NCBI GenBank assembly: GCA_002224055.1
Contig: AZLU01000159.1
Location: 33,426-97,425 of the forward strand
Source: Pezizomycotina sp. ARF18
Taxonomy: Eukaryota > Ascomycota
Direction of reading: 5' to 3'
DNA length: 64,000 nt
The position numbers and the translations under genes were made by a program. How positions within the stretch are numbered: position 1 is the stretch's first letter; each line of letters begins with the position of its first letter. Positions 11,884 through 64,000 of this stretch are shown here, one piece after another. The notes beneath the pieces are model-generated. The model did not search any database. It worked only from the letters and a program-made list of their open reading frames with translations, and had not been told where the DNA came from.

Positions 11884-14846
11884 CTACCCTCTTTTCAGAC
11901 CAAGCGACAATGTAACCGCTTGCTGCAAGTTGGTGAACTTGGGTAGCGAGGCACCGTAGCTGCCACTTCCTCCATTGCTGTTCTTGCCATTTCCGTTTCC
12001 ATTATCAGAGTTTCCGCTCTTGCTGCTGCTGCTACCACTACCATTTTGAGCGTTCTGGTTGGTAGCGTTGGAGCCTTTAATGGCGGCAGCGCTAACTTTA
12101 GGACTTTCCTTTGCCGGCGTGCTTGTCACGGGCAGGGAGTCGGCCTGAGCTCGTTCCTGCTTCGTGGGAGTAGCCTTAGCATCTTGTTGCTGTTGCTTTC
12201 AGTGGGGTGGTTCTTGCTTCTGGCTTCGCTAGCTGAGCAGACACCTCAGGAGATTGTACTTTCGGTGCCTGCTGTTGCTGATCTGGCTCGGCGGTTGCTT
12301 TGCGCTGCTGCTGCTGAAGATGAGCCATACTGCTGCTGAGAGGAGCTAGACTGTTGCTGAGATGAACCGTAACCCATTGAGATGAGGACTCCTGGGCGGG
12401 AGGCGTGTACACAGGACTTGTGCAGCGTAGGACGTGCTGCTTGGCCACTCTGTTGATATCCACCAGCAGGCGGGGCGTATACTGGAGCTGCAGCCTGGGA
12501 AGACATCATAGGCGGAGCCTCGGCATGGCCGGAGCATATACAGGAGCTTCAGCAGGGGAGCTCATCGCTGGTGCTTGGGCGTACGCCGGGCAGAGCTGGT
12601 CGGTAGCGGCGCTTCGGCCATTGCGGAAGAAGTAGTGCACGGCTGAGACCGGGCGCGGCGGGCTCGGGCTCAGGCATGGCAACATCTGCGGCATGTACGA
12701 GTTCTGCATGGCGGAGGAGTGGTGGTGCGTAACCACCCATGCCGGACCAGGAGTTCATCGGGCAGGCACAGTGGCAGTTGCAAGCCTGGGGTGGCTGCTG
12801 CTGCTCAGGAGACTGCGCTGGTGGAGAGTGTATGACGGAGCAGGTGCAGCCTGTATGGGAGCTTGCGCCGGCGGAGTGACAGTGACCGTGTTAACCTCTG
12901 TCTGAACCTGGTTCACGGTCTCAGTCTGGATCTGGTTAACGGTTTGAGTCTCAACATTATTGACCGTCTGAGTGACGACGTCGGTCTGAATTGATTGACG
13001 GTCTCAGTTTGCACCTGATTGACGATTTGAGTCTGAACGTTGTTGATGGTCTGGGTGACAACGTCCGTCTCGAAGTGTTGACGGTCTGGGTCATCGTTTG
13101 GACCTGGTTCACGGTCTGAACGTAGGTGACGAATTTATCGCTCTCGACAGTCTCGGTCATAGTCTGAACCTGGTTGACGGTCTGAATATAGGTGATAAAT
13201 TTATCCTTCTCCACAGTCTGCGTGACATCCCTCTCAACGGTCTGAGTCTGGAGGTAGACCTGTGTCTTAGTGATGTCGTTCTCCACGGTTTGCGTGACGT
13301 CCCTCTCGAGAGTCTGTGTTTGGACGTAGACTTGTGTCTTGATAACATCATTCTCCACAGTCTGTGTAACAGCTTTCTCAAGAGTCTGAACGTATACCTG
13401 GGTCTTGGTAACGTCGTTCTCGACGGTCTGTGTTTGAAGGTAGACCTGAGTCTTCGTAACATCGTTCTCAACGGTCTGCGTCTGAACGTATACCTGAGTC
13501 TTTGTAACGTCATTCTCGACGGTCTGTGTCTGAAGGTAGACTTGAGTCTTGGTAACATCGTTCTCCACAGTCTGTGTAACAGCTTTCTCAAGAGTCTGAA
13601 CGTATACCTGGCTTGGTAACGTCGTTCTCGACGGTCTGTGTTTGAAGGTAGACCTGAGTCTTCGTAACATCGTTCTCAACGGTCTGCGTCTGAACGTATA
13701 CCTGAGTCTTGGTAACATCGTTCTCAACAGTTTGAGTTTGCGTCTGGAGATAGACTTGGGTCTGTAACATCGTTTTCGATCGTCTTTGTAACGTCATTCT
13801 CAACCGTTTGAGTCTGTAGGTAGACCCTCGTCTTCGTAACGTCATTCTCGACCGTTTGGGTCTGTGTTTGAACGTAGAGCTGGGTCTTGGTGACGTCGTT
13901 CTCAATGTCTGAGTCCGCACGTAAGTGATGAACTTGTCCTGCTCCAAGGTCTTGACATAGGTAATGAACCTATCCTTCTCAACGGTCTGAGTCTGGACGT
14001 AAACTTGCGTCTTGGTAACGCGTTCTCGAGCGTTTGGGTCCTGAAGTAGGTGAAGAACTTGTCCTTTTCAATAACGTCCGTCTTTGTCACATCATTCTCA
14101 ATAGTTCGAGTCTGAATATAGTTCTTGGTTTCCGTTTCCGTAAGGGTTTCGAACATAGTATCAGTCTTGACCAAGAACTTGGTGTATAACTGGACGACCG
14201 TAGTTGGGATTTCCTCGACTTTAGTAACAAACTTCTTCACCGTCTCGGTCTCGGTTTCCGTGTAGATGACAGTCGTGGGGATCAGACGAGTGTAGACCTT
14301 GGTCTCGAACATGGTTTCAGTTTCCTTGTAAACAACAACCTTGGTTGAAACATAAGTAGTCGGCACGAGCTCGTATAGGTCTTGGTCTCAAGATCGACTT
14401 CCGTCTTAGTAACGTGAATAGTCTTAGGAGGAAGGTGTAGAACACCGTGACGGGCTTCGTCACAACGTCAGTCTCCTTCACTGTTTCCGTAACCTTCGTG
14501 TCTCTGTCACAACATAGTTGCCACCCTTATTGTTGTAGTTGTTATTCGAGTTGTAGTAATTAGGAGGCGCATTGTATGGAGGCGGTGAATATTGCTGCGG
14601 AGGTGCGTAGTACGACGGAGGGGTATTAGACGCCTTGTACGCATTCGTTGACGACGTATACCCATATTGCTGCCCTTGCCCATACGAAGGAGTTTGCCCG
14701 TACGAAGGAGCCTTCGATATCTCGCTCACATCCACCGATCCAATTTGGCCGCCAAAGCCAGGAGCCGATGCCTGGGCGATAGCCATGAGCTGGCCCACCA
14801 CGGCAAAAATTGCCGCCGATCTTAGACTGTTTGCTGACCTCGTCAT
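11884..14846 (-). CDS. Large secreted repeat protein (adhesin-like), Thr/Val/Gln-rich
   Basis: ATG at 14846 opens a secretion signal (SAAIFAVVGQLMAIAQASA), then a Tyr/Gly/Gln/Pro/Asn-rich segment with repeats of PSYGQ. Next is a region dense in alternating Thr, Val and Glu (KVVVYKETETMFETKVYTRL), and then many copies of a 16-residue repeat, TVENDVTKTQVYLQTQ, mixed with variants (LEKAVTQ, EKDKFITYVQTVNQVQT). The C-terminal third is rich in Ala/Pro/Gln/Ser with APVYAPP motifs and ends in a Ser/Asn/Gly linker and a short tail (LPKFTNLQQAVTLSLGLKRG). About 980 residues if read through. I see no GPI signal or enzymatic domain. The composition resembles fungal cell-wall or adhesin-type repeat proteins; this is inference, and no named family is recognised. 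At least eight frame changes occur, including one proved by comparing repeat copies. Gene-poor flanks of over 2 kb on both sides. Confidence 0.7.
13351..13710. repeat. 210-bp in-frame tandem duplication inside the repeat gene
   Basis: Positions 13351-13502 recur at 13561-13710, offset 210 bp (70 codons). The two copies agree base for base as far as I can compare them, except that the second lacks 2 bp near 13611 (CCTGGGTCTTGG against CCTGGCTTGG), which throws the second copy out of frame. Confidence 0.9.
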
Positions 14847-33901: not shown

Positions 33902-34994
33902 TTATAATAGGCTGTAAAACTTCGCCGGCTTGCATAGTTGAAGACGAATGTAAATTAGATTCCGCCCAACCAAATTAGTTACCCATTGATCATCTATATA
34001 CATGATGTCTTCGTCGCTAGAATTCATTGAGTAAACGTCTAATTCGGTACCAAAATCAAAGTTATCCTTCAGTTCTACTTTCTTGAACCTATCAACCAGC
34101 TTCTGACCTGAGGCGGGTGAGTTGTGAGGTGTAGAGGAAGGCGAGGAGCATGCCGCGACATAAATGATTTTAGTTAAAAACCATAAAATATCTTCTCGAT
34201 GATTGCTGTCTCGCGTGCAATACACTTTGATCTTATTGCCACCCCCCAATTGTCCAGGCGCAAGAAAAGAGATTCATCGCCAGTTGCACATACGCCAAAG
34301 ACAGTGTGATTTTCCTTCTCGTTGTACTTTCGATGAGCTGAAAGTATTGCCATGTAAACCAGTGTTTGAGGTGCTCCATCGAGTGCACGGGAAAGATTGG
34401 ATTTCGCTTCGATAACAATGACGAAATTTTCGAGCATAGGAACGGTCCGAGAATCCTTGATATTCCCGTGTCCTAGAAGATAATCGGTCCGGCCGGTTAT
34501 TTCAGTTCCGAGTTCTTTACAGCTATGCTTAAGGTTAACTTCCGTCCATAGCCCGAGTTTACAGTTAGGTAAATCTTCCTGTCTAAGCGAAACGGGAAGC
34601 GGCGTAACGGCATTTGCCGAAAATGACGAGCGGGACAGCAAATGCGGTATAGGTGTGGCGGGTGTAGGCGGGTGAACTGCCGGTGGGGTGGCGACTGGAG
34701 AGGAAGTAGAAGAGTAAGATGAGGAAAAAGGGATGAGCGGAACGGGCGCGGATGGCGCGAGAGCTTCGGACGACGTGATCGTTGCAGAAGAGGAAGAAGG
34801 GTAAGTTGGTAATAGCGATGCGCGTGCGGCGGGGTTACGGACGAAGAGAATCCGGGCAGGGTAGCTGGCGTGGCGCGGGAAACACGCGATGACGAGGATG
34901 ATGGACGTGAGGCCGAGAATGAAGAAGGGGATGCAGGCGTTGATGGCGCAGAAGACTCGGACGGTGTAGCCGCCGGGGACAGGAGGGTCGTCAA
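33902..34994 (-). CDS. PD-(D/E)XK nuclease-like fungal protein
   Basis: The N-terminal part is low-complexity and rich in Ser, Pro and Ala (start unresolved; no good ATG seen near 34994). The ordered part reads LPNCKLGLWTEVNLKHSCKE, then TEITGRTDYLLGHGN, ENFVIVIEAKSNLSRALDGA and PQTLVYMAILSAHRKYNEKE. Asp in GRTDYLLG followed about 25 residues later by the E-A-K triad of VIEAK is the spacing of a PD-(D/E)XK active site; a helix with LVYMAIL follows as in such folds. The downstream part HTVFGVCATGDESLFLRLDN and a final acidic tail end at 33902 after one frame break near 34190. Similar domains occur in fungal proteins linked to transposons or Crinkler-like genes; that relation is inference. Function unknown. 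Confidence 0.5.
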
Positions 34995-35768
34995 AAGTAG
35001 CCGTCGCCGGGATTGGTGGATATATTGTTGCGTCGCGAGGTTTTATATCTTTTCCTCAACGATTGTCTTGGCTCGTAAGATAAACAAATCGATGACCATA
35101 CGAGACGCCGCTTTTGTTTCTAAAGCAAATGCTTCGCCCTAGAGTTCGAGCGCCTTCTCTACAGCGAGTTAGCTTTAGTAGATTGGAGATGCTTAAAAAG
35201 GAGGATTCGAGACCTACCGAACTCCTTGTCAGATAGGATTTCTTCTCCGCGGCGGCAACTCCAGGTCGGGTCGCACGGTGATGCCGCATTCCATACAATG
35301 ATCACACATGCTTAGAACTTCGAATGAAAGGTTGAAATAATTTTGAATATCAGTAAGGGGATATTGTGGCAGATATAGTTTTTGGCTTCTTTGCTATGTC
35401 GTGCAACAGCTTGGAGAGTCCTTTGCCAACAGGGTCATCGTTTTCCCTCCATGCACCTCGTAATTTCCTGGATAGATTGAAGCTCTCAAAACCTGATCGG
35501 CCGAACTTTAGTGTTTAACATCTTGAATGAACTACTGCTGGTCGGCAATGGACAGAGCGATTCTTTATAAAAATAGTCTTGGCCCCTCCATGTGTGAATT
35601 CGGAATAGGTGTGCGGTACGCTTTATCAAGGTGACAGGGGTGCGGCTTTGTATATACAGATTTCGTTGGATCACGTGTCATTTATGACTCATAGCTTTGT
35701 CATAATATTCATTGATCTTGGCCGTGACGTGCATCGCACGCTCTTAGACTCCTCGAAATAGCAGCCCT
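34995..35768. other. Intergenic between nuclease-like gene and atg6
   Basis: Must hold the 5' end of the nuclease-like gene and the atg6 terminator. A 62-codon minus-strand frame at 35486-35674 has no recognisable features. Confidence 0.4.
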
Positions 35769-35819
35769 TTAAGCATCCGCCGGCGGCGCTGTCCTTTGCG
35801 CCGACTCCGGTCGAAGATG

Positions 35820-35858
<39 letters not shown>

Positions 35859-37529
35859 CCTCTTCGCGTACCCTTGGTTCGAAGTATGCGCCAGCAGGAA
35901 CTTAACACACGTCAGCGTATACTTGCACGCCCTCGTCCACGGCTCGTCCTGGTTGAACGTGAGCCGTATGCTGACTTCGCCGATCTTGTCCTTGACAATC
36001 TTATACGGTAGCGACAAGGTAGGATCCTTTTTTTCAACCCAGTCGCCCATCTGCTTCACGCAGTCCAGAAACGCGACCATCGCGCCGTCGAACTTGCGGT
36101 GGCGAAGAGGTGGCCCATCGTAACGTTCCGGAGCTGAATAGTTCGAGCGTTTGCACGCGGGATTCGGGTTGCGGAGTAGACGCGGAACCGTTCATGGATG
36201 ATGTGCTGGAGCCTGTTGTAGGCGGACCTCCATTTTTTCGATTTTGGAGGTGGAGCCCATCGGTTTCAGGCGGTAGCCTTCGAATTGGAAGCCGAGCTTG
36301 TCTGCGACGGTGTGGAGGAGGAGTAGTACTTGGCCCCAGGCGGCGTTTATCTCTGACCATTCGACCTAGAAAATAATGATAAGGAAGACGACTAGTTATT
36401 AAATACTCCAAAGTGAGAAAAGCGTTGAAATCGGGACTTAAGACGTACGGGCTGCTGAGGAAGCTTGCCCAGCCGTAAACCATTGATCGTGCCAAAATGC
36501 CCATCGTGACCGATACAGAAAGTATCATTATAGACATTTGTCCTTTGTAACCGCTCCAGCTGCTTCGAGTCAAACTCGAATTGCGTGTTCACGCTGTCCC
36601 TCTCGTTCTGGAAATCCCTCAGCTCGGTCATAAAATCGTTCCTCTCCCTCCAGAATTCCTCCTCGTGCTCCTCCAGCAGTTTCGACTCGGCTTGGAGCTC
36701 CTTAATCTCCTTCTCCATCTCCTCCTTCAGCTTCTCCAGCTTCTCGAGTTCCCTCATTGACTCTTCCTCCTCTTCCTTCGCCTTCGCGAGGTCGGCTTTG
36801 ACCTGCTTCACTTCCTCATCCGTCGGTACCTCAGCCTGCACCTTCTTCACAAAATCCTGGAACGCGTCGCGCTCCTGCGTTATATTACTCAGCTTTTTAC
36901 TCATCCCTTCCACCAGCGCCTCCGTGCAGTCCGCGCATATGGGTAATCAACATCCGACCTCGAGCTCAAAACGTCAAAAAGCTTCGCCGAAGTCCTCATC
37001 TTGTGCGAGAGCATCGAGTCGTTATCCTCATCCGCACTCCCATCCACGACGCCCGAGCGCCGGTTGGGGCTGCTGTCCCTCTGCCCGCCGGCCGTATCAG
37101 GAGCGTGCATAACCACCGAATCCGAAAGCACGACGAAGGACTCCGCCGCCGTACTACCACCACCCGCTGCTGCCAGTGGCGACGGGTACCGCGGGGCGCT
37201 GGGACGGTGCGCTTGACCACGGCTTGCGACGCATTTTGGTTCGCTTTATCGTAGATCTCGCGGCGCTCGTTGGGTCGGGTAGGCGTCGATTGCTTTGCTG
37301 ACGAGTGCGAGGCGGACCGTGCTATGCTTTCCTGGGAGCTCTTGCTTGTGGAACCTGTATTGCCACCGATTTAATTGCTCGAGAGGTTAGCTATAGGACA
37401 TAGAAAGAAAAGAGTAAAGAAGAACTTCGTTGGTGGATTCTTGCCTGTTAGGAGATTGAGTCCCGCCGGGCTCAGGTCCTGCAGGGACTTGTGTAATGTC
37501 AGAGGCGTTCGGCACTTCTGACAGTACAT
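35769..37529 (-). CDS. atg6: Autophagy protein Atg6 / Vps30 (beclin 1)
   Basis: Atg6 is the beclin subunit shared by PI3-kinase complexes I (with Atg14) and II (with Vps38). Exon 1 (37529-37445) encodes [20 protein letters not shown] with the conserved N-terminal CxxC. A 90-bp intron (37444-37355) has a GC donor (CAG|GCAAGA) and CAG acceptor. Next are a Ser/Thr-rich region, [20 protein letters not shown], and the second Cxx[14 protein letters not shown], near 36930. A long Glu/Lys coiled coil follows ([20 protein letters not shown]), then [20 protein letters not shown]. After an intron, the BARA domain reads [20 protein letters not shown] and [19 protein letters not shown], and [21 protein letters not shown] run of 12 Gln sits near the C-terminus. 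Frame breaks near 37190, 36936, 36128 and 36103 each restore the family sequence if one base is missing. Confidence 0.95.
35823..35858. repeat. atg6: (CAG)n tract encoding 12 Gln in Atg6
   Basis: Twelve consecutive Gln codons (on the minus strand, ten CAG then CAA, CAG) just after the conserved end of the BARA domain ([11 protein letters not shown]), before a short Pro/Ala tail. Confidence 0.9.
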
Positions 37530-37991: not shown

Positions 37992-39906
37992 ATGAGAAGC
38001 ATTGTCCTCAGTCTAGCTCGAAGACAGAACGCTTTAGCTATTATCGGTCGTCAATTCCTTATCAAGTCTCAATTCCCCTCGAGCTACCAAAGAAGCATCA
38101 GCATATTTCGCAATTCCTTTTTACCATCAACCTCCACTCAATTTCAAAGACATATCTCTAGCGACGCAACAGATCTAAATACTGCTACAATGGGCAAAGA
38201 AAGGTTACCTTTAACTTGAAGACGCCGAAGGGCACAAAGGATTGTAAGCTTGCAGCTTCGAATTCTCTTTGAAGGTCTATCATTTTTGCCCAATTCAATA
38301 CTAATCACGAACGTTTTCCATGAGTTCTAGGGGCCGGCGTCGACATCGCCGTCCGCGACGACATCTTCAACAGGATCGTCACCGTCTTCAAGAAGCACGC
38401 GCCGTCTCCCTCGACACCCCCGTCTTCGAGCTCAAGGACATCCTATCCGGCAAGTACGGCGAGGACTCCAAGCTGATCTACGACCTCAAAGACCAAGGCG
38501 GCGAAGTCTGCTCCCTCGCTACGACCTCACCGTACCCTTTGCCCGCTGGCTCGCAATGAATCCTTCCGTTCAGAACATCAAGCGGTACCACCTCGCCAAA
38601 GTCTACCGCCGCGATCAGCCCGCTGTAACGAAAGGTCGGATGAGGGAGTTCTACCAGTGCGATTTCGACATCGCGGGGACGTACGACGCCATGTTACCCG
38701 ACGCGGAGGTTATGAGGATCACCGTGGAGATATTGAACAGCATGGACATCGGGGAGTACACGATCAAGATTAACCACAGGAAGATCCTGGACGGGCTTTT
38801 CGCGGTGTGCGGCGTGCCCGAGGAGAAGTTCAGGACGATATCGAGTGCGGTGGATAAGCTGGATAAGTCGCCGTGGGCGGAGGTGCGGAAGGAAATGACC
38901 GAGGAGAAGGGTTTGGCGCCCGAGGTCGCGGATAAGATTGGAGAATACGTCGTCAAAAAAGGTATATATATACTAATCTCAGCTATATCGAAATCTCAAA
39001 TTCGGAGAAATTTGGTTTAATTAACAAGATATGAAATGATTAGGTGGCAAGGACCTCCTGAAACAGCTCAAATCCTCCGAAGAGCTCATGGCGAACGCAG
39101 CCCTAAAAGCCGGCCTGGAAGACATGGAACTCCTCTTCACTTACCTAGACATCTTCGACGTCACCCCAAAAATCTCCTTCGACCTCTCCCTCGCCCGCGG
39201 GCTGGACTACTACACCGGCGTCATCTACGAAGTAGTAACCGACTTTCCGCCCACCCGCCGCCTCGGGTTCCGTAACCGCAACCAAGAAAAAGAAACCCAA
39301 GAAGCCCGAAACCGACGATCCCGAGGCCGACAGGTCCGAAGACGACACCGTCGGCGTAGGATCCATCGCGGCAGGCGGTAGGTACGATGAACTCGTGGGT
39401 ATGTTCTCCTCCAAAGCGAAGATACCGTGCGTGGGTATATCGTTCGGCGTCGACAGGATATTCAGCATTGTCAAGAAACGGCTGGAGAAGAAGGAAGTGC
39501 AGCTGCGGTCGGCGGAAGTTGAAGCATTCGTCATGGCGTTTGGCGGGGGTCTGCTGGTGGAGCGGATGCAGGTCGCGAAGGAGCTGTGGGACGGTAACAT
39601 TAAGGCGGAATTCACGTATAAAGCCAAGCCGAAGCTGCCGCAGCAGTTTAAAGCCGCGGAACAAGGTGGCGTTCCGTTCGCTGTCATACTGGGCGAGGAC
39701 GAGCTGAAGGCTGGTAAGGTGAAGGTTAAACAGTTGGGTCTCGAGGAAGGCCACCCGAGAAGGAAGGGATCATGATTAATAGGAATGATATGGTCGCGGA
39801 GATCAGGAAGAGGCTCGCTGCGATTAAGGAGCAGGAACTGAAAGACGCAACGACGCTAGACTCCGAAGCTTCGAAGTTGAAATCAGGATCCCGAGAATCA
39901 AAGTAA
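37992..39906 (+). CDS. hts1: Histidyl-tRNA synthetase, mitochondrial and cytosolic
   Basis: Charges tRNA-His. Two in-frame starts: ATG 37992 opens a 66-residue Arg/Ser-rich, acid-poor leader ([20 protein letters not shown]) suited to mitochondrial import; ATG 38190 (MGKE) starts the cytosolic form. After [11 protein letters not shown] and an intron (GTAAGC near 38243 to TTCTAG near 38330) come class II motif 1 ([20 protein letters not shown]), [20 protein letters not shown], and motif 2 ([12 protein letters not shown]). A second intron near 38961-39043 precedes the histidine A signature [14 protein letters not shown], and [20 protein letters not shown]. Motif 3 is [14 protein letters not shown]. 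The anticodon domain ([12 protein letters not shown]) ends at TAA 39904-39906. Frame breaks near 38203, 38402, 38518, 39260 and 39757 are each corrected by one extra base. Same arrangement of dual targeting is known for yeast HTS1. Confidence 0.95.
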
Positions 39907-40985: not shown

Positions 40986-41231
40986 TTAAGCCGGCTCGAG
41001 AGGCGAAGCAAACATCGGAGCGTTGACTGCCTCAGGCTTAAGCTTATCGGTGTTGGGAATTTTAACGGTGTCTTCGTTCGGGTACGCGCTGCCATTATTC
41101 GAGTAAAAACTCCCCTCGGTTGAGTAGAAACTCCCTTCTTTCGGATAGAAACTGCCCTCGTTCGAATTAAAACTCTCTTTGGTCGAGTAAAAACTCTCCT
41201 CGTTAGAGTAGCAGGTCTCGTCGGAGTCGTA
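40986..41231 (-). other. In-frame extension beyond the kinase stop, 7-residue repeats
   Basis: Directly after the TAG at 41234-41232 the same frame stays open for exactly 81 codons to a TAA at 40988-40986. It encodes six tandem 7-residue repeats (GSFYSTE, ESFYSTK, GSFYPKE, GSFYSNN) in 21-bp units, then an ordinary tail. It may be the true C-terminus of the kinase if the TAG is an error or is read through. Confidence 0.55.
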
Positions 41232-44346
<3,115 letters not shown>

Positions 44347-52024: not shown

Positions 52025-55000
52025 TTAAGTGGAAGCAGGCTTTGGCCTCTCAGCAACGGTGATATTTCCATGGTCGTCGATCGAGAATTGCTGGCCGCTA
52101 AGTCTGCACATTCGTTCAATCGTGCGCATCAAGGGTTCCTAATTCAATGGGTTATAATTTAGTTACTGGAGTTTAATTATATTAAGCAGTTGGTGGAAAT
52201 ATATAGTGAATAACACCTACCATATCTTGCCGTGCCTGTCTTCGGCCGCAGATGGCCCTGGACAAGGATTTTGTTGCTCGTATGTGGCATAGTAATTCTG
52301 AACTTGGGCCAAATAGCTCTGCAAGTCCCGCTTGTAGGCAGCTTGCTCGGCGTCTCTTTGGGCATTGGTAGCGGCCGCTTGTCGCTCGTAACGAGCCTTT
52401 TCCCTCGGAGATACCGTCTCCCACTTCCTGCTCAAGGTATTCCTGATAGTTTCCTTGGTCACGTTTCTGCGACCCGCTTGCCGGAGCTCGTTTTTCGTCT
52501 GGTCCCATTTGTCCTTGGAGAATAGCACCCAAGGGTTGGCTTTGCCCGCCGTAGGCTTCGGAGGTGGACTGCCGAAAAGCTCTTCTGCCTTGACACGACA
52601 GCTTTCATAATAGCCATCCAAACGCTGTCTCTTCAGCTTGTAGTATTGTCGGATCGGATGCTCGTTCGGATCCGGATCTGTTTCCGCCTTCCGCTTCAAG
52701 AAGTTCGGTTTCGGCCTTGGTGGAGTGCCTTTTCGAGCTCTTCTTCGATACTAGACTTCGTCATGATGAGGTTTTCCGGTATCTGAATGTCGCCAATATA
52801 GGACCTAAGTACCTCCTCGGCAGCTCTCAATCCGCTAATGTAGGCCCCGGGAACGGTAGCAGGATGGGTTCCGCAAGTCGCTTCGCCGGCGAAAAATAGT
52901 TTCCCGTCGATAGATTTGGCTAGATTATCGTAGTCCGTCGGCGTGGTAGTGACGCTCGAGAAGGAATAAGATCCTCTGCTGAACTCATCCTGGCGCCATT
53001 TGGTCACGATAACCTCAACGGGGTCGGGAAGCTTCTGTAGATTAAACTTCTTTCTAAAGATTCTAGTAAGGATCTTCATGGCTTCCTGAGAAAGCTCGGA
53101 TTCTAGTTCTGTCTCCACCTGAACTGCGGCCTCGCCCGCCATCAAGCCGACTACAAATGCACAAGCAATTAATGATCAGGAAAAATAAAAATAAAATAAG
53201 AGGTAGGGAGGATCATTACCTAGAGCCGGTCGACCGCACGCCTTCGATACGTTCCAGAACATGTAAAATCTCCCACGGTTGGCTGCATAGCTTGACTGTT
53301 TCGTTGGGTCTCCCCATGGCTCTCGCAATGTGCCAAACATATCGTTGTCGACGTCCCAAAAAGGCTTGTCGAATATCAAGATTACCTGCCAAGTTATATC
53401 AGTTAAATGATTTTTCTTGCCGTGTGGGGTGGCTTTACGAACATACCTTGTTGAAGACACCAAAGCCTAGATTGTCGATGGCATCCTGCTTCCAGCTAGG
53501 CAGATTAGGATTAAATTGTATCGTATCGTTCTTCAAGCAGCCCAAAGATGATGTTACGACGACCTTGTCGACTTTCATGAATTTCCGGTTTTCCACCTCG
53601 AATTCGATAGTGGATGTAGCACCAACTGGCACTAAGAAAGCAAGTTGAGCTTTTTGTGCGATCTCAATTTCCTTCTCGTCGTCCCAACTAATCACGACTT
53701 CCTTGGTGAGATCGTCCTGGTCGTAGGTAACTCTCCTGACAGGAATATCAGTGTAGACATTCTCCAACGGCTTTGGATATTCCGCAAGGGTATCGACCAG
53801 GCTTGAATACCCCCCGACCATGAGACAATGAGCTCCAGCAAAGTTATTGCCTTCATCTTGGTCCCAGAGTGACAGACTGAGTTCGTCCTCGCGACAAGCG
53901 TTCGAGTATTCACTGTTGGCATGGTGCCAGTTGAATAAGCGCTGGTGCTGCGAATTTACGTAAGTCATCTCCTTATAGTGATCTAGGACCTTATCCAGAG
54001 TCTTCCCCAAAGATTCCCGGCCGTTTTCGTCGCAAACAGGCTGAATATCCACGTCTTCAAATTTATCTACGCCGGGTCTCAAGGACCACCCTTCGTGTTG
54101 TAGCTTCATGGCCGCGGGTAGTTTCTTAGGGGCTTCGGCAGCTTCGTCTTCCCTCGGTAAGTCTCTATTTGTCGAAGTCCACAACCTTCCGAGTGGTCTG
54201 TCCCAGGTGTCGAGCCAATCTCCTCTTCGCTCGCCAAGGGCAATCGGCCCAAGGCCTCCATCACCAGGCGCGTTGCGGCACTGGTCTATTAAAGTGGAGC
54301 TGATCGCTTCTGCTGTCTTAATAGGAGCTTGTTCGGCTTTGAACTCACCGACGCGGTCCAACGCATCGTTGTACATGAAATCAACCTTGTCGTCTTCTCT
54401 TTTGCTAACCTCTTTTCCATTTGTGTCGTAGATGGGACAGGCGCCTTTTACATAGTGCAATGGCAGACCCTTTTGTTTAATTATCGCATCTAGTGGGTTG
54501 CCCGTAAGACCTGTTATTACTTGCGCTCCAATTTCGACGCTCGGCTGTTCAAGGACCGGGATGGATGGATGGCCTTCAATTGGTCGGGATGGGCTCTGAA
54601 GAGGACGCGAAAATACCCTTCCACCGAGCCTATCTCTTGCTTCAAGGACATATACTTGTGGAATGTCCTCAGGTTGACGAATCGGTCTTTGAATTGCCAG
54701 AAGAGGTAGTTTAACTGTCTCGCACAGCTTAACCAGAAACGCCGGCTCCAATGATTCCAACAATCTTTTGTGATTTTGATCGCTCGGGGAAATCAAGGCA
54801 CCCATAGTTGATATAGCCATGTCGAACGAGGAATTCCCAGCAGTAATCGGCAAGTTCAGCGTGACGTGGATCGCTGATACAACTGGCGGCCTGCTCTCTC
54901 GTTATTGGTGATGTGAGCGTGGTGTGCCACAGTTTCAGTATCTTATTCCTGATGATAAGATAGTTCGTCGCCTGGAGGAGATTTATGGAGTGCCGCAGCA

Positions 55001-61858: not shown

Positions 61859-62080
61859 ATTCTGCCAAGACTTTTATATATAAAAATAAATAAACATGTA
61901 GTTATTTTATATAATTTTATATTATTTTTACATTTTTACATCGATTTAAATATTATTTTTATATATATTTTATATATATTATTATTATTTATTATTTATT
62001 TATTATTTATATATTATTATATTATATACAATACATTTGCTAGCTACTACATCTCTATGTCTACTACTAGTATTTCTATG

Positions 62081-62420
62081 CTATGGTTCACCACCATGGA
62101 TGTCCACACTAATCTCCCTACAGAGACCGGTATCCCCATGCCATAGTTCAACACCATGGGTGTTCTCCACCAACATCTCCATATCCACCACCAACATCTC
62201 CCTGTAGAGCACCGGTATTCCCATGCCATGGTTCACCACTATGGATATCCACCACCAACATCTCCCTACAGAGCACCGGTATCCCATACTATAGTTTAAC
62301 ACCATAGGTGTTCTCCCATTAACATCTCCATATCTACCACCAATCTCTCTGCAGAGCTCTGGTATCCCTTATACTATGGTTTACTACCATGGGTGTCCTC
62401 TCTACTAATATTACTATATT
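62081..62420. repeat. Minisatellite with alternating 60- and 85-bp units
   Basis: Units begin CCATGGTTCACCAC / CTATAGTTTAACAC and contain CCACCAACATCTCC and CAGAGCACCGGTATCCC. Unit starts at 62081, 62141, 62226, 62289 and 62374 give lengths 60, 85, 63 and 85, so the higher-order period is about 145-148 bp. Copies differ mostly by C to T and G to A changes. Confidence 0.85.
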
Positions 62421-64000
62421 ATGTCTCTATATTTAAACCAATATGTAGTAAAACCTCTATAATTACTAAAAACTAAAGAGATTTACTTACCTAAAGCAAG
62501 AACCACCGCGGCATCTTAATACAATAATAGAGAATTAGGTTATTTTTTATTAAACTAGGGGAAGGTAATATAAGGTAATACCGCTATACCTATGCTAGAC
62601 CCCGGAATCCCCGGTTACCTTACGGATTCCATATTAACTCGCATCATAAAGTATCATATAAGGCGTGTTAGGTGCCTATATGTGCATAATAGAAATAGGC
62701 TTAGGTCGTCCAAGCGAGGTTCTAACACTTTAGTTCTTTCCACCTTTATAAAAACTTAACACCTTCTAGTTTTCTTCTACCTTATAAAAACTTAATACCT
62801 TTTAAAATAATTTAACCTTTTAATAAAACTACGCCTTTTAATTTTAAATATCTTTAACGTATTATAGGATTAATTTACCTTTTCTAACGTATATTATTTT
62901 AAATTTTTAATTAAAAGGCATATTTTAATCGAAAAATTATTAAAAAAAATAAAAATAAAGTAAAAAAGAAATAAAAAAATAAAAAAAAAAACAAATAAAT
63001 TAGAATAGTTTAAATAATAAATAATATATATATTATATATTAGGAGGCGATAACTACTCTCTAGCCTACCGTAGCTACTTATACGCGTGTTCTTTTTCTA
63101 CTCTTTCTCTACTCTTTCTTTATTCTTATCGTAAGCATCTTATATGCGTGTTCTTTTTCTACTCTTTTTTTACTCTTTCTCTACTCTTTATTATAAGCTA
63201 TTTAAACGCGTATTTTTCCTCTACTCTTTATTAATAGAAAGACGAGGCTATATAATTTTACTTATAACTACCTTTATTTTTAATAAATTAACTAGTACCT
63301 AGTACCCCTTTAATATTTAGATTATAATTATAATTTTAATTAAAAATAGAGATAGTATAACTAAGATTTTATAATAATAAAGTTAGCCTATCGATAAAAA
63401 GAAACGATATTAAGATAAAAATTTAATTAAAATTTCGATTAAATTAATAACTAATTATAATATAAAATTAAATAATATAATAAATTAAAAGAGATAGATA
63501 TAGATATAATTACTCTACCAACTTTTTTAAATTATATATTCTATATTCTATAAGTATTAGTTTTTAAAGTTTTATATAGCCTATTAAAGAGTTAGAGCTA
63601 TATAAACTATTCTAGACTTTATTATAAGCGGGCGTATTTTATCATATTTTCTTTATTAAATAATATAAAATCTAAAGGCTAGTAAGGTACTTTAATAATA
63701 ATAATATTAATATTAAATAGTTATAAATATAATATTTTAATTAGAAATTGTTGTTGGTAAGAGCGTTCAAGGCCTCAATTGCCGGGCAATACCTCGTAAA
63801 GACTTAAAGTTAATTTATATTTTTACTAAAGATATATATAATATCTATTTTACTCCGCTTTTTCTAACTTAATAGAGGAGAATTATTTAGTAAGATAGAT
63901 TCTACCTATATAACCTTTTTTATTAATAATAGATTAAAAGTTCTAGTGACCATAACTTAGGATAAACCGAGCTATAATCTATTAGAGGATATTATTTATT

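What the first reader, a model, noticed from the sequence alone, without database searches (positions are those of the whole stretch)
11884..14846. Unrecognised secreted protein built from 16-residue Thr/Val/Gln repeats
Signal peptide, Tyr/Gly/Gln-rich spacer, then a long array of TVENDVTKTQVYLQTQ-type repeats with strict alternation of polar and beta-branched residues, then an APVYAPP-rich segment. I know no named family with this repeat. It could be a beta-solenoid or amyloid-like wall adhesin. It stands alone in about 5 kb of gene-poor DNA, as expected for a fast-evolving surface gene.
Basis: partly seen in the sequence, partly recalled or inferred. Interest (0 to 1): 0.7.

Follow-up and report, generated by a model that had tools for sequence, protein, structure and literature searches.

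The report
Fungal secreted protein with threonine-faced repeats
A fungal gene, broken in this assembly by frame shifts that look like sequencing errors, appears to encode a secreted protein whose long central repeat keeps nearly every threonine on one side of an alternating chain, as a structural or sticky cell-surface protein might.

Summary
The feature is real. On the minus strand an ATG at 14846 opens a likely signal peptide, then a Tyr/Gly/Gln/Pro-rich spacer, a Thr/Val/Gln array of about 540 residues, an Ala/Pro/Tyr/Gln-rich part and a Ser/Asn/Gly-rich end at 11884. The frame changes at least nine times between 14.5 and 13.0 kb; two conserved genes of the window also change frame, so consensus indels are likely, but decay is not excluded. 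I worked on pieces and mended nothing. Main result: over nine array pieces 131 of 135 Thr sit on one residue parity, with 0 of 68 Gln and 5 of 48 Lys/Arg, although unit spacing varies (8-16, always even in the longest piece). Copies differ mostly at third codon positions. No significant match in the Pfam, NCBIfam, PHROGs, PDB-sequence, IMG/VR, GTDB, phage or plasmid searches made; no fungal collection was available. One locus was found in its 46.4-Mb genome. Best reading: a wall or matrix protein whose beta-strand array has a Thr face.

The parts
14481..14846 (-). Signal peptide and Tyr/Gly/Gln/Pro/Asn-rich spacer (piece A); no Cys
   Evidence: own-genome search gives itself and one weak match at E 0.18
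14368..14499 (-). Start of the Thr/Val/Lys array, two short pieces in two frames (B, C)
14025..14375 (-). Divergent Thr/Glu/Val/Lys/Tyr-rich part of the array (piece D): 27 of 30 Thr on one parity, the 3 exceptions each the first Thr of Pro-Thr-Thr
13611..14025 (-). Tandem TVENDVTKTQVYLQTQ-type array, pieces E, F, G, each in another frame than its neighbour
13080..13610 (-). Longest open piece of the array (H, 177 aa): 41 of 41 Thr on one parity, no Gly, Pro or Cys
12860..13074 (-). Third repeat type, TDVVTQTVNNVETQTVNQIQTETVNQVQ (piece I and the first part of J)
   Evidence: 83-nt repeat, 77% alike
12190..12859 (-). Ala/Pro/Tyr-rich (APVYAPP, SPVYTPP), then Gln/Ser-rich part; frame changes several times
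   Evidence: three-frame translation, read by eye
11884..12189 (-). Ser/Asn/Gly/Lys-rich C-terminal end (piece L) with stop; tail only weakly hydrophobic (best 12-mer 0.73)

Best explanation
A secreted structural protein of the fungal wall or extracellular matrix, possibly adhesive. Shown: a leader with a strong hydrophobic core; low-complexity ends; a central array of about 540 residues whose two-face dipeptide pattern is kept across at least three repeat types and through units of different length. Inferred: the leader sends it to the secretory pathway; the array runs as beta-strands with Thr (with Val and, in the tandem part, Asp/Glu) on one face and Gln/Lys/Tyr (with Val) on the other; short END or NQ stretches may be turns; neighbouring strands or molecules pack into sheets, the Thr face being O-mannosylated or used for lateral packing; the Tyr/Gly/Gln- and Ala/Pro/Tyr-rich ends are flexible and may serve in crosslinking. 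Only parity, not unit length, has to be kept, which would explain why units of 8, 10, 12, 14 and 16 residues are tolerated.
For: On the Thr parity over pieces B-J: Thr 131 of 135, Gln 0 of 68, Tyr 1 of 27, Lys/Arg 5 of 48. H 41 of 41 and D 27 of 30, each reached by 0 of 10,000 shuffles. In 104 control cases (a 100-aa piece of another frame of the window with at least 12 of one of five residue types) the best reached 12 of 15. All 13 unit spacings in H are even. Among 21 copies, third codon positions carry 637 of 1,214 differences; eight 16-residue units give pS 0.67, pN 0.039 (picked by an amino-acid pattern, which lowers pN). H and G have no Gly, Pro or Cys and mean beta propensity 1.16, D 1.10, against 0.93-0.97 in three conserved ORFs (recalled scale). 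Leader hydropathy. Hydrophobicity of H has a period-2 component reached by 13 of 500 shuffles.
Against: No structure could be computed. No homologue of known function. In D hydrophobicity shows no period 2 (213 of 500 shuffles reach it) but a helix-like period of 3.67 (6 of 500; 14 periods tried), and D's only PDB echo, E 0.22 and not significant, is a GCN4 fusion construct. I and J peak at period 4 (1 and 3 of 500). Mean helix propensity of H (1.03) is like that of the conserved ORFs (1.01-1.10). Piece B untrimmed shows no parity bias (6 of 8; 2,242 of 10,000 shuffles). The acid/base split of H (35 of 36 charges) is absent in D (19 of 34; 2,355 of 10,000 shuffles) and the acids of I and J all lie off the Thr parity (0 of 7). 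Copies are not independent, so shuffles overstate significance for the tandem part. No clear GPI signal or wall-binding domain. The frame is broken in this assembly.
Confidence: 0.45

Rival explanations
1. A mucin-like stalk: a disordered, heavily O-mannosylated Thr-rich spacer with no beta-fold; regular Thr spacing serves the mannosyltransferases.
For: Thr is 23% of H and 26% of D; low-complexity ends; [quoted passage not shown]
Against: The array has almost no Ser or Pro (H: 1 Ser, 0 Pro; D: 1 Ser, 3 Pro), unlike usual mucin stalks (recalled). Gln, Tyr and Lys/Arg also keep parity (0 of 68, 1 of 27, 5 of 48 on the Thr side), which glycosylation alone does not ask for.
Confidence: 0.24
2. A regular beta-solenoid with a 16-residue coil.
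For: Identity at lag 16 is the highest of lags 1-49 in H (0.46); runs of 48-nt copies; bacterial and fungal ice-nucleating proteins have 16-residue solenoid coils (PMC12978214, passages).
Against: Runs of 16 are interrupted by 8-, 10-, 12- and 14-residue units; no Gly in H for tight turns. No model available.
Confidence: 0.12
3. A decaying pseudogene or a wrongly assembled repeat, with no protein made.
For: At least nine frame changes between 14.5 and 13.0 kb and more towards 12.2 kb, by impression denser than in neighbouring genes (not measured).
Against: The histidyl-tRNA synthetase gene (near 38.5 kb) and the Atg6/beclin gene of the window also change frame without an intron-sized gap (by eye), and two overlapping chitin-synthase matches on contig C64 lie in different frames, so the consensus seems to carry indels. 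Third-codon-position excess speaks for long selection on the protein; start, leader and stop are present.
Confidence: 0.12
4. An ice-binding or ice-nucleating protein: regular Thr-x-Thr motifs on one beta-face order water.
For: The 16-residue units give two TxT motifs each (TKT, and TQT across the unit boundary) on the same parity; TxT arrays on beta-solenoids are the putative ice-nucleating motif of Mortierellaceae proteins, one of which has a signal peptide (PMC12978214, passages).
Against: No Pfam PF00818 match in the 8 pieces scanned nor in the own genome (0 of 1, but 0 of 14 control genomes rang too, so uninformative). No SLT or YGS in the array pieces; unit length varies.
Confidence: 0.04

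Closest known systems
Fungal cell-surface GPI proteins rich in Ser/Thr without a recognised N-terminal domain (Hwp1, Pga22, Fig2 kind; PMC6023273, section 16)
   Same: Signal peptide, Thr-rich low-complexity repeats, no folded ligand domain found; length near 1,000 codons
   Different: No clear GPI signal found; array nearly without Ser and Pro; strict Thr parity with Gln/Lys/Tyr on the other parity
Als (36-residue) and Flo1 (50-residue) adhesin repeats (PMC6023273, section 19)
   Same: Repeats thought to be beta-sheet and to promote hydrophobic or amyloid-like aggregation
   Different: Units here are 8-16 residues; no match to these families among the 8 pieces scanned against Pfam
Bacterial and Mortierellaceae ice-nucleating proteins (InaZ type; PMC12978214, passages)
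   Same: 16-residue units with TxT motifs; secretion in the fungal case
   Different: No PF00818 match, no SLT or YGS in the array, unit length not constant
Gp5_C octapeptide repeat of phage needles (PF06715)
   Same: Eight-residue submultiple of the repeat; the only Pfam echo of pieces F and G
   Different: E 0.93 and 0.91, below cut-off; lacks the conserved Gly of that repeat (recalled)

Membership tests
Typical fungal GPI-anchored adhesin | N-terminal secretion signal | tested here: met
   Leader with a 12-residue core of mean hydropathy 2.28 (recalled scale); no dedicated predictor was on hand
Typical fungal GPI-anchored adhesin | Ser/Thr-rich tandem repeats | tested here: met
   Thr 23-26% and repeats; but Ser is nearly absent from the array
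Typical fungal GPI-anchored adhesin | C-terminal GPI-attachment signal with hydrophobic tail | tested here: inconclusive
   Tail in the open frame is weakly hydrophobic (best 12-mer 0.73); the frame there is uncertain
Typical fungal GPI-anchored adhesin | Folded ligand-binding domain (present in many, not all) | tested here: not met
   No Pfam family at its cut-off in 8 of 8 pieces scanned; pieces B, C, I and the part 12.19-12.76 kb were not scanned
Ice-nucleation protein (InaZ, PF00818) | Match to the Ice_nucleation profile | tested here: not met
   None among 8 pieces scanned; own genome none, with an uninformative control
Ice-nucleation protein (InaZ, PF00818) | 16-residue coil with TxT, SLT and YGS motifs | tested here: not met
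   TxT present; spacing 8-16; SLT and YGS absent from the array pieces
Regular beta-solenoid | Constant coil length | tested here: not met
   Spacings 8, 10, 12, 14 and 16 in H
Functional amyloid | Cross-beta fibres | not testable with these tools

The most novel reading that the evidence does not exclude
The array is a distinct kind of protein material: a chain of about 540 residues, its tandem core free of Gly, Pro and Cys, governed by a parity rule rather than a fixed repeat length, forming two-faced beta-sheets with an uninterrupted threonine face used for lateral assembly or for ordering water.
Probability: 0.1. Interest if true: 0.7.

Novelty: new variant of a known kind. Interest (0 to 1): 0.37.

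Why it matters
Adhesins and wall proteins outside a few ascomycete yeasts are sparsely described, and sequence searches do badly on low-complexity repeats (PMC6023273, passages and section 16). A simple measurable rule (residue parity kept through units of different length) could find such arrays where similarity searches cannot, and could separate beta-structured arrays from mucin-like stalks.

Tried and rejected
One search covered a wrong frame of piece H; I ignored it and repeated it in the right frame. Searches failed because a reference ran through a stop; I corrected the coordinates. A whole-genome search for 18S rRNA (RF01960), meant to help name the organism, did not complete, so the species is unknown. 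A paper search by assembly size led nowhere. Radial-spoke protein PF06098 was not found in the genome, but 0 of 14 control genomes rang, so a flagellated fungus is not excluded. Weak profile hits (EF-Ts_N E 0.005, MU2_FHA 0.02, phrog_24073 E 0.0025 and others) are below cut-off or of unknown function and usual for repetitive queries; rejected. PDB sequences: none for H or its four-row profile, one at E 0.22 for D, a GCN4 fusion. IMG/VR: no pattern match. GTDB genomes: 11 pattern matches, none confirmed (one peptide pattern). Phages (H only) and plasmids (D only): none. Charge segregation as a rule for the whole array was tested and rejected. One search stopped on an error and was rerun. Paper searches for a like protein; none of the listings showed one, and most listed papers were seen as listings only. 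Passages of PMC13408134 and PMC8746771 were read and not used.

Changed on re-check: the helix-like period of D, the untrimmed piece B, the 0.55 identity of loose units and the unscanned parts are now told; for these the confidence in the best reading went from 0.50 to 0.45, the mucin rival from 0.22 to 0.24 and the novel case from 0.12 to 0.10.

Full report
What was checked. The window is part of contig C159 of a 46,361,250-base, 408-contig genome for which no relatives are held. It is a fungus by inference: the genome has chitin-synthase (PF03142, 8 matches) and fungal transcription-factor (PF04082, 34 matches) domains. PF03142 also rang in 4 of 14 control genomes, all four bacteria, so PF04082, which rang in 0 of 14, weighs more. 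Species and phylum could not be established, because the rRNA search did not complete.

The gene. No single ORF spans it. Three-frame translation shows at least nine frame changes between 14.5 and 13.0 kb and further ones to about 12.2 kb. I used eleven open pieces and joined none. The window's histidyl-tRNA synthetase (PF13393; PDB match at E 1.2e-67) changes frame near 38.5 kb within a conserved stretch with no room for an intron, and so does the Atg6/beclin gene (PF17675 and PF04111) near 36.1 kb (both judged by eye; 2 of 2 genes inspected so). On contig C64 two chitin-synthase matches overlap by 13 bases in different frames. Consensus indels are therefore the likelier cause. The break rate in the array looks higher than in those genes; I did not measure it.

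The pattern. In piece H (177 aa) residue identity is 0.12-0.46 at even lags and 0-0.07 at odd lags (lags 1-49). All 41 Thr share one parity; 0 of 10,000 shuffles do so. Piece D, which is not visibly tandem, has 27 of 30 (0 of 10,000); its three exceptions are each the first Thr of Pro-Thr-Thr. E has 9 of 9 (9 of 10,000 shuffles), F 12 of 12 (0), G 13 of 13 (1), I 6 of 6 (177), J 11 of 11 (0); B has 6 of 8 untrimmed (2,242 of 10,000) and 6 of 7 trimmed; C 6 of 6, not shuffled. In all, on the Thr parity: Thr 131 of 135, Gln 0 of 68, Tyr 1 of 27, Lys/Arg 5 of 48, Asn 9 of 26, Val/Ile/Leu 60 of 138, Asp/Glu 47 of 76. The acid/base split is clean in H (35 of 36 charges) but not in D (19 of 34), and acids of I and J lie off the Thr parity (0 of 7). 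As a control, 104 cases (100-aa pieces of other frames of the window with at least 12 of one of five residue types) reached at most 12 of 15.

Hydrophobic periods (14 periods tried, 500 shuffles each). H: period 2 (reached by 13 shuffles) and 8 (20). D: period 3.67 (6) and 8 (18), but not 2 (213). I and J: period 4 (1 and 3). So the strand-like period in hydrophobicity is limited to H, and D could be helical; the Thr parity of D then needs another reason.

Selection. Among 21 copies of the TVE-type unit (pieces D to H) the five codons after the anchor differ 637 times at third, 266 at first and 311 at second positions (210 pairs); amino-acid identity there is 0.55. Eight full 16-residue units give pooled pS 0.67 and pN 0.039 over 28 pairs; they were picked by an amino-acid pattern, so pN is biased down, and pairs are not independent. 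Two of the eight are identical in DNA, and a 208-nt period at 92% match (copies at 13404 and 13612 94% alike) shows a recent block duplication. So the amino-acid pattern seems old and kept, while copy number has changed recently.

Relatives. Searches of the own genome with pieces A, D, H, J and L returned the gene itself plus weak matches to A (E 0.18) and L (E 0.25 and 0.51); the tool scores only its best candidates. Pfam: no family at its curated cut-off for 8 of 8 pieces scanned; B, C, I and 12.19-12.76 kb were not scanned. NCBIfam: 0 for 4 of 4 pieces; PHROGs: only weak matches of unknown function (3 pieces). Sequences of solved structures: none credible. IMG/VR, GTDB genomes, phages, plasmids: none. 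No collection of fungal genomes was available, so absence of fungal relatives is not shown. The string TVENDVTKTQVY occurs in 0 of 5.39 million held papers.

Surroundings. Of ten ORFs scanned around the gene, nine between 8.2 and 19.3 kb have no Pfam match at E up to 0.01 and one at 20.8-21.3 kb has a sub-threshold ATG14 match; 13 more flanking ORFs listed were not scanned. The nearest clear gene found on the other side is a Methyltransf_28 gene at 7.2-7.7 kb.

Interpretation. A chain whose residues alternate in chemistry over some 540 residues, with beta-favouring composition (H 1.16, D 1.10, against 0.93-0.97 in three conserved ORFs; helix propensity of H 1.03 is not low, recalled scales) and no Gly, Pro or Cys in H, is best read as beta-strands with two different faces. 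Units of 8 to 16 residues keep the faces but not a coil length; that argues against a regular solenoid and for sheets or meanders. With a secretion leader and low-complexity ends, a wall or matrix role is the likeliest, adhesion being one form of it. Typical yeast adhesins have Ser/Thr-rich repeats and stalks, and some surface proteins of that kind lack recognised N-terminal domains (PMC6023273: passages, sections 16 and 19). The resemblance to TxT-bearing ice-nucleating proteins of Mortierellaceae (PMC12978214, passages) is one of motif only; membership fails. That many fungal secreted proteins carry Thr-x-Thr low-complexity stretches is my recall, not a result; it is the main reason why I do not score this higher.

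Noticed in passing
window 38422-38700 (+) and 35900-36200 (-): Histidyl-tRNA synthetase and Atg6/beclin genes change frame inside conserved stretches: the assembly seems to carry consensus indels.
   Followed up: partly
window 35818-35855 (-): A run of about a dozen Gln codons in the frame that follows the Atg6/beclin domain (TGC array).
   Followed up: no
window 42539-42632: About ten copies of a 9-bp unit that one minus-strand frame reads as Met-Gln-Ser-type repeats.
   Followed up: no
window 41098-41210: About five copies of a 21-bp unit inside an open minus-strand frame.
   Followed up: no
window 34174-35055 (-): Open frame of 293 aa without Pfam match whose end looks to me like a restriction-nuclease-like fold (by eye, recalled).
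   Followed up: no
window 62000-64000: G+C falls to 27% with 148-bp tandem repeats at 62070-62392: perhaps a repeat island.
   Followed up: no
window 12762-12784 (-): One frame of the gene's proline-rich part reads CNCHCAC, a possible small cysteine cluster; the frame is uncertain there.
   Followed up: no
window 52217-54901 (-): LSD1-type histone demethylase gene followed by a frame that looks like an HMG box (by eye, not scanned).
   Followed up: no
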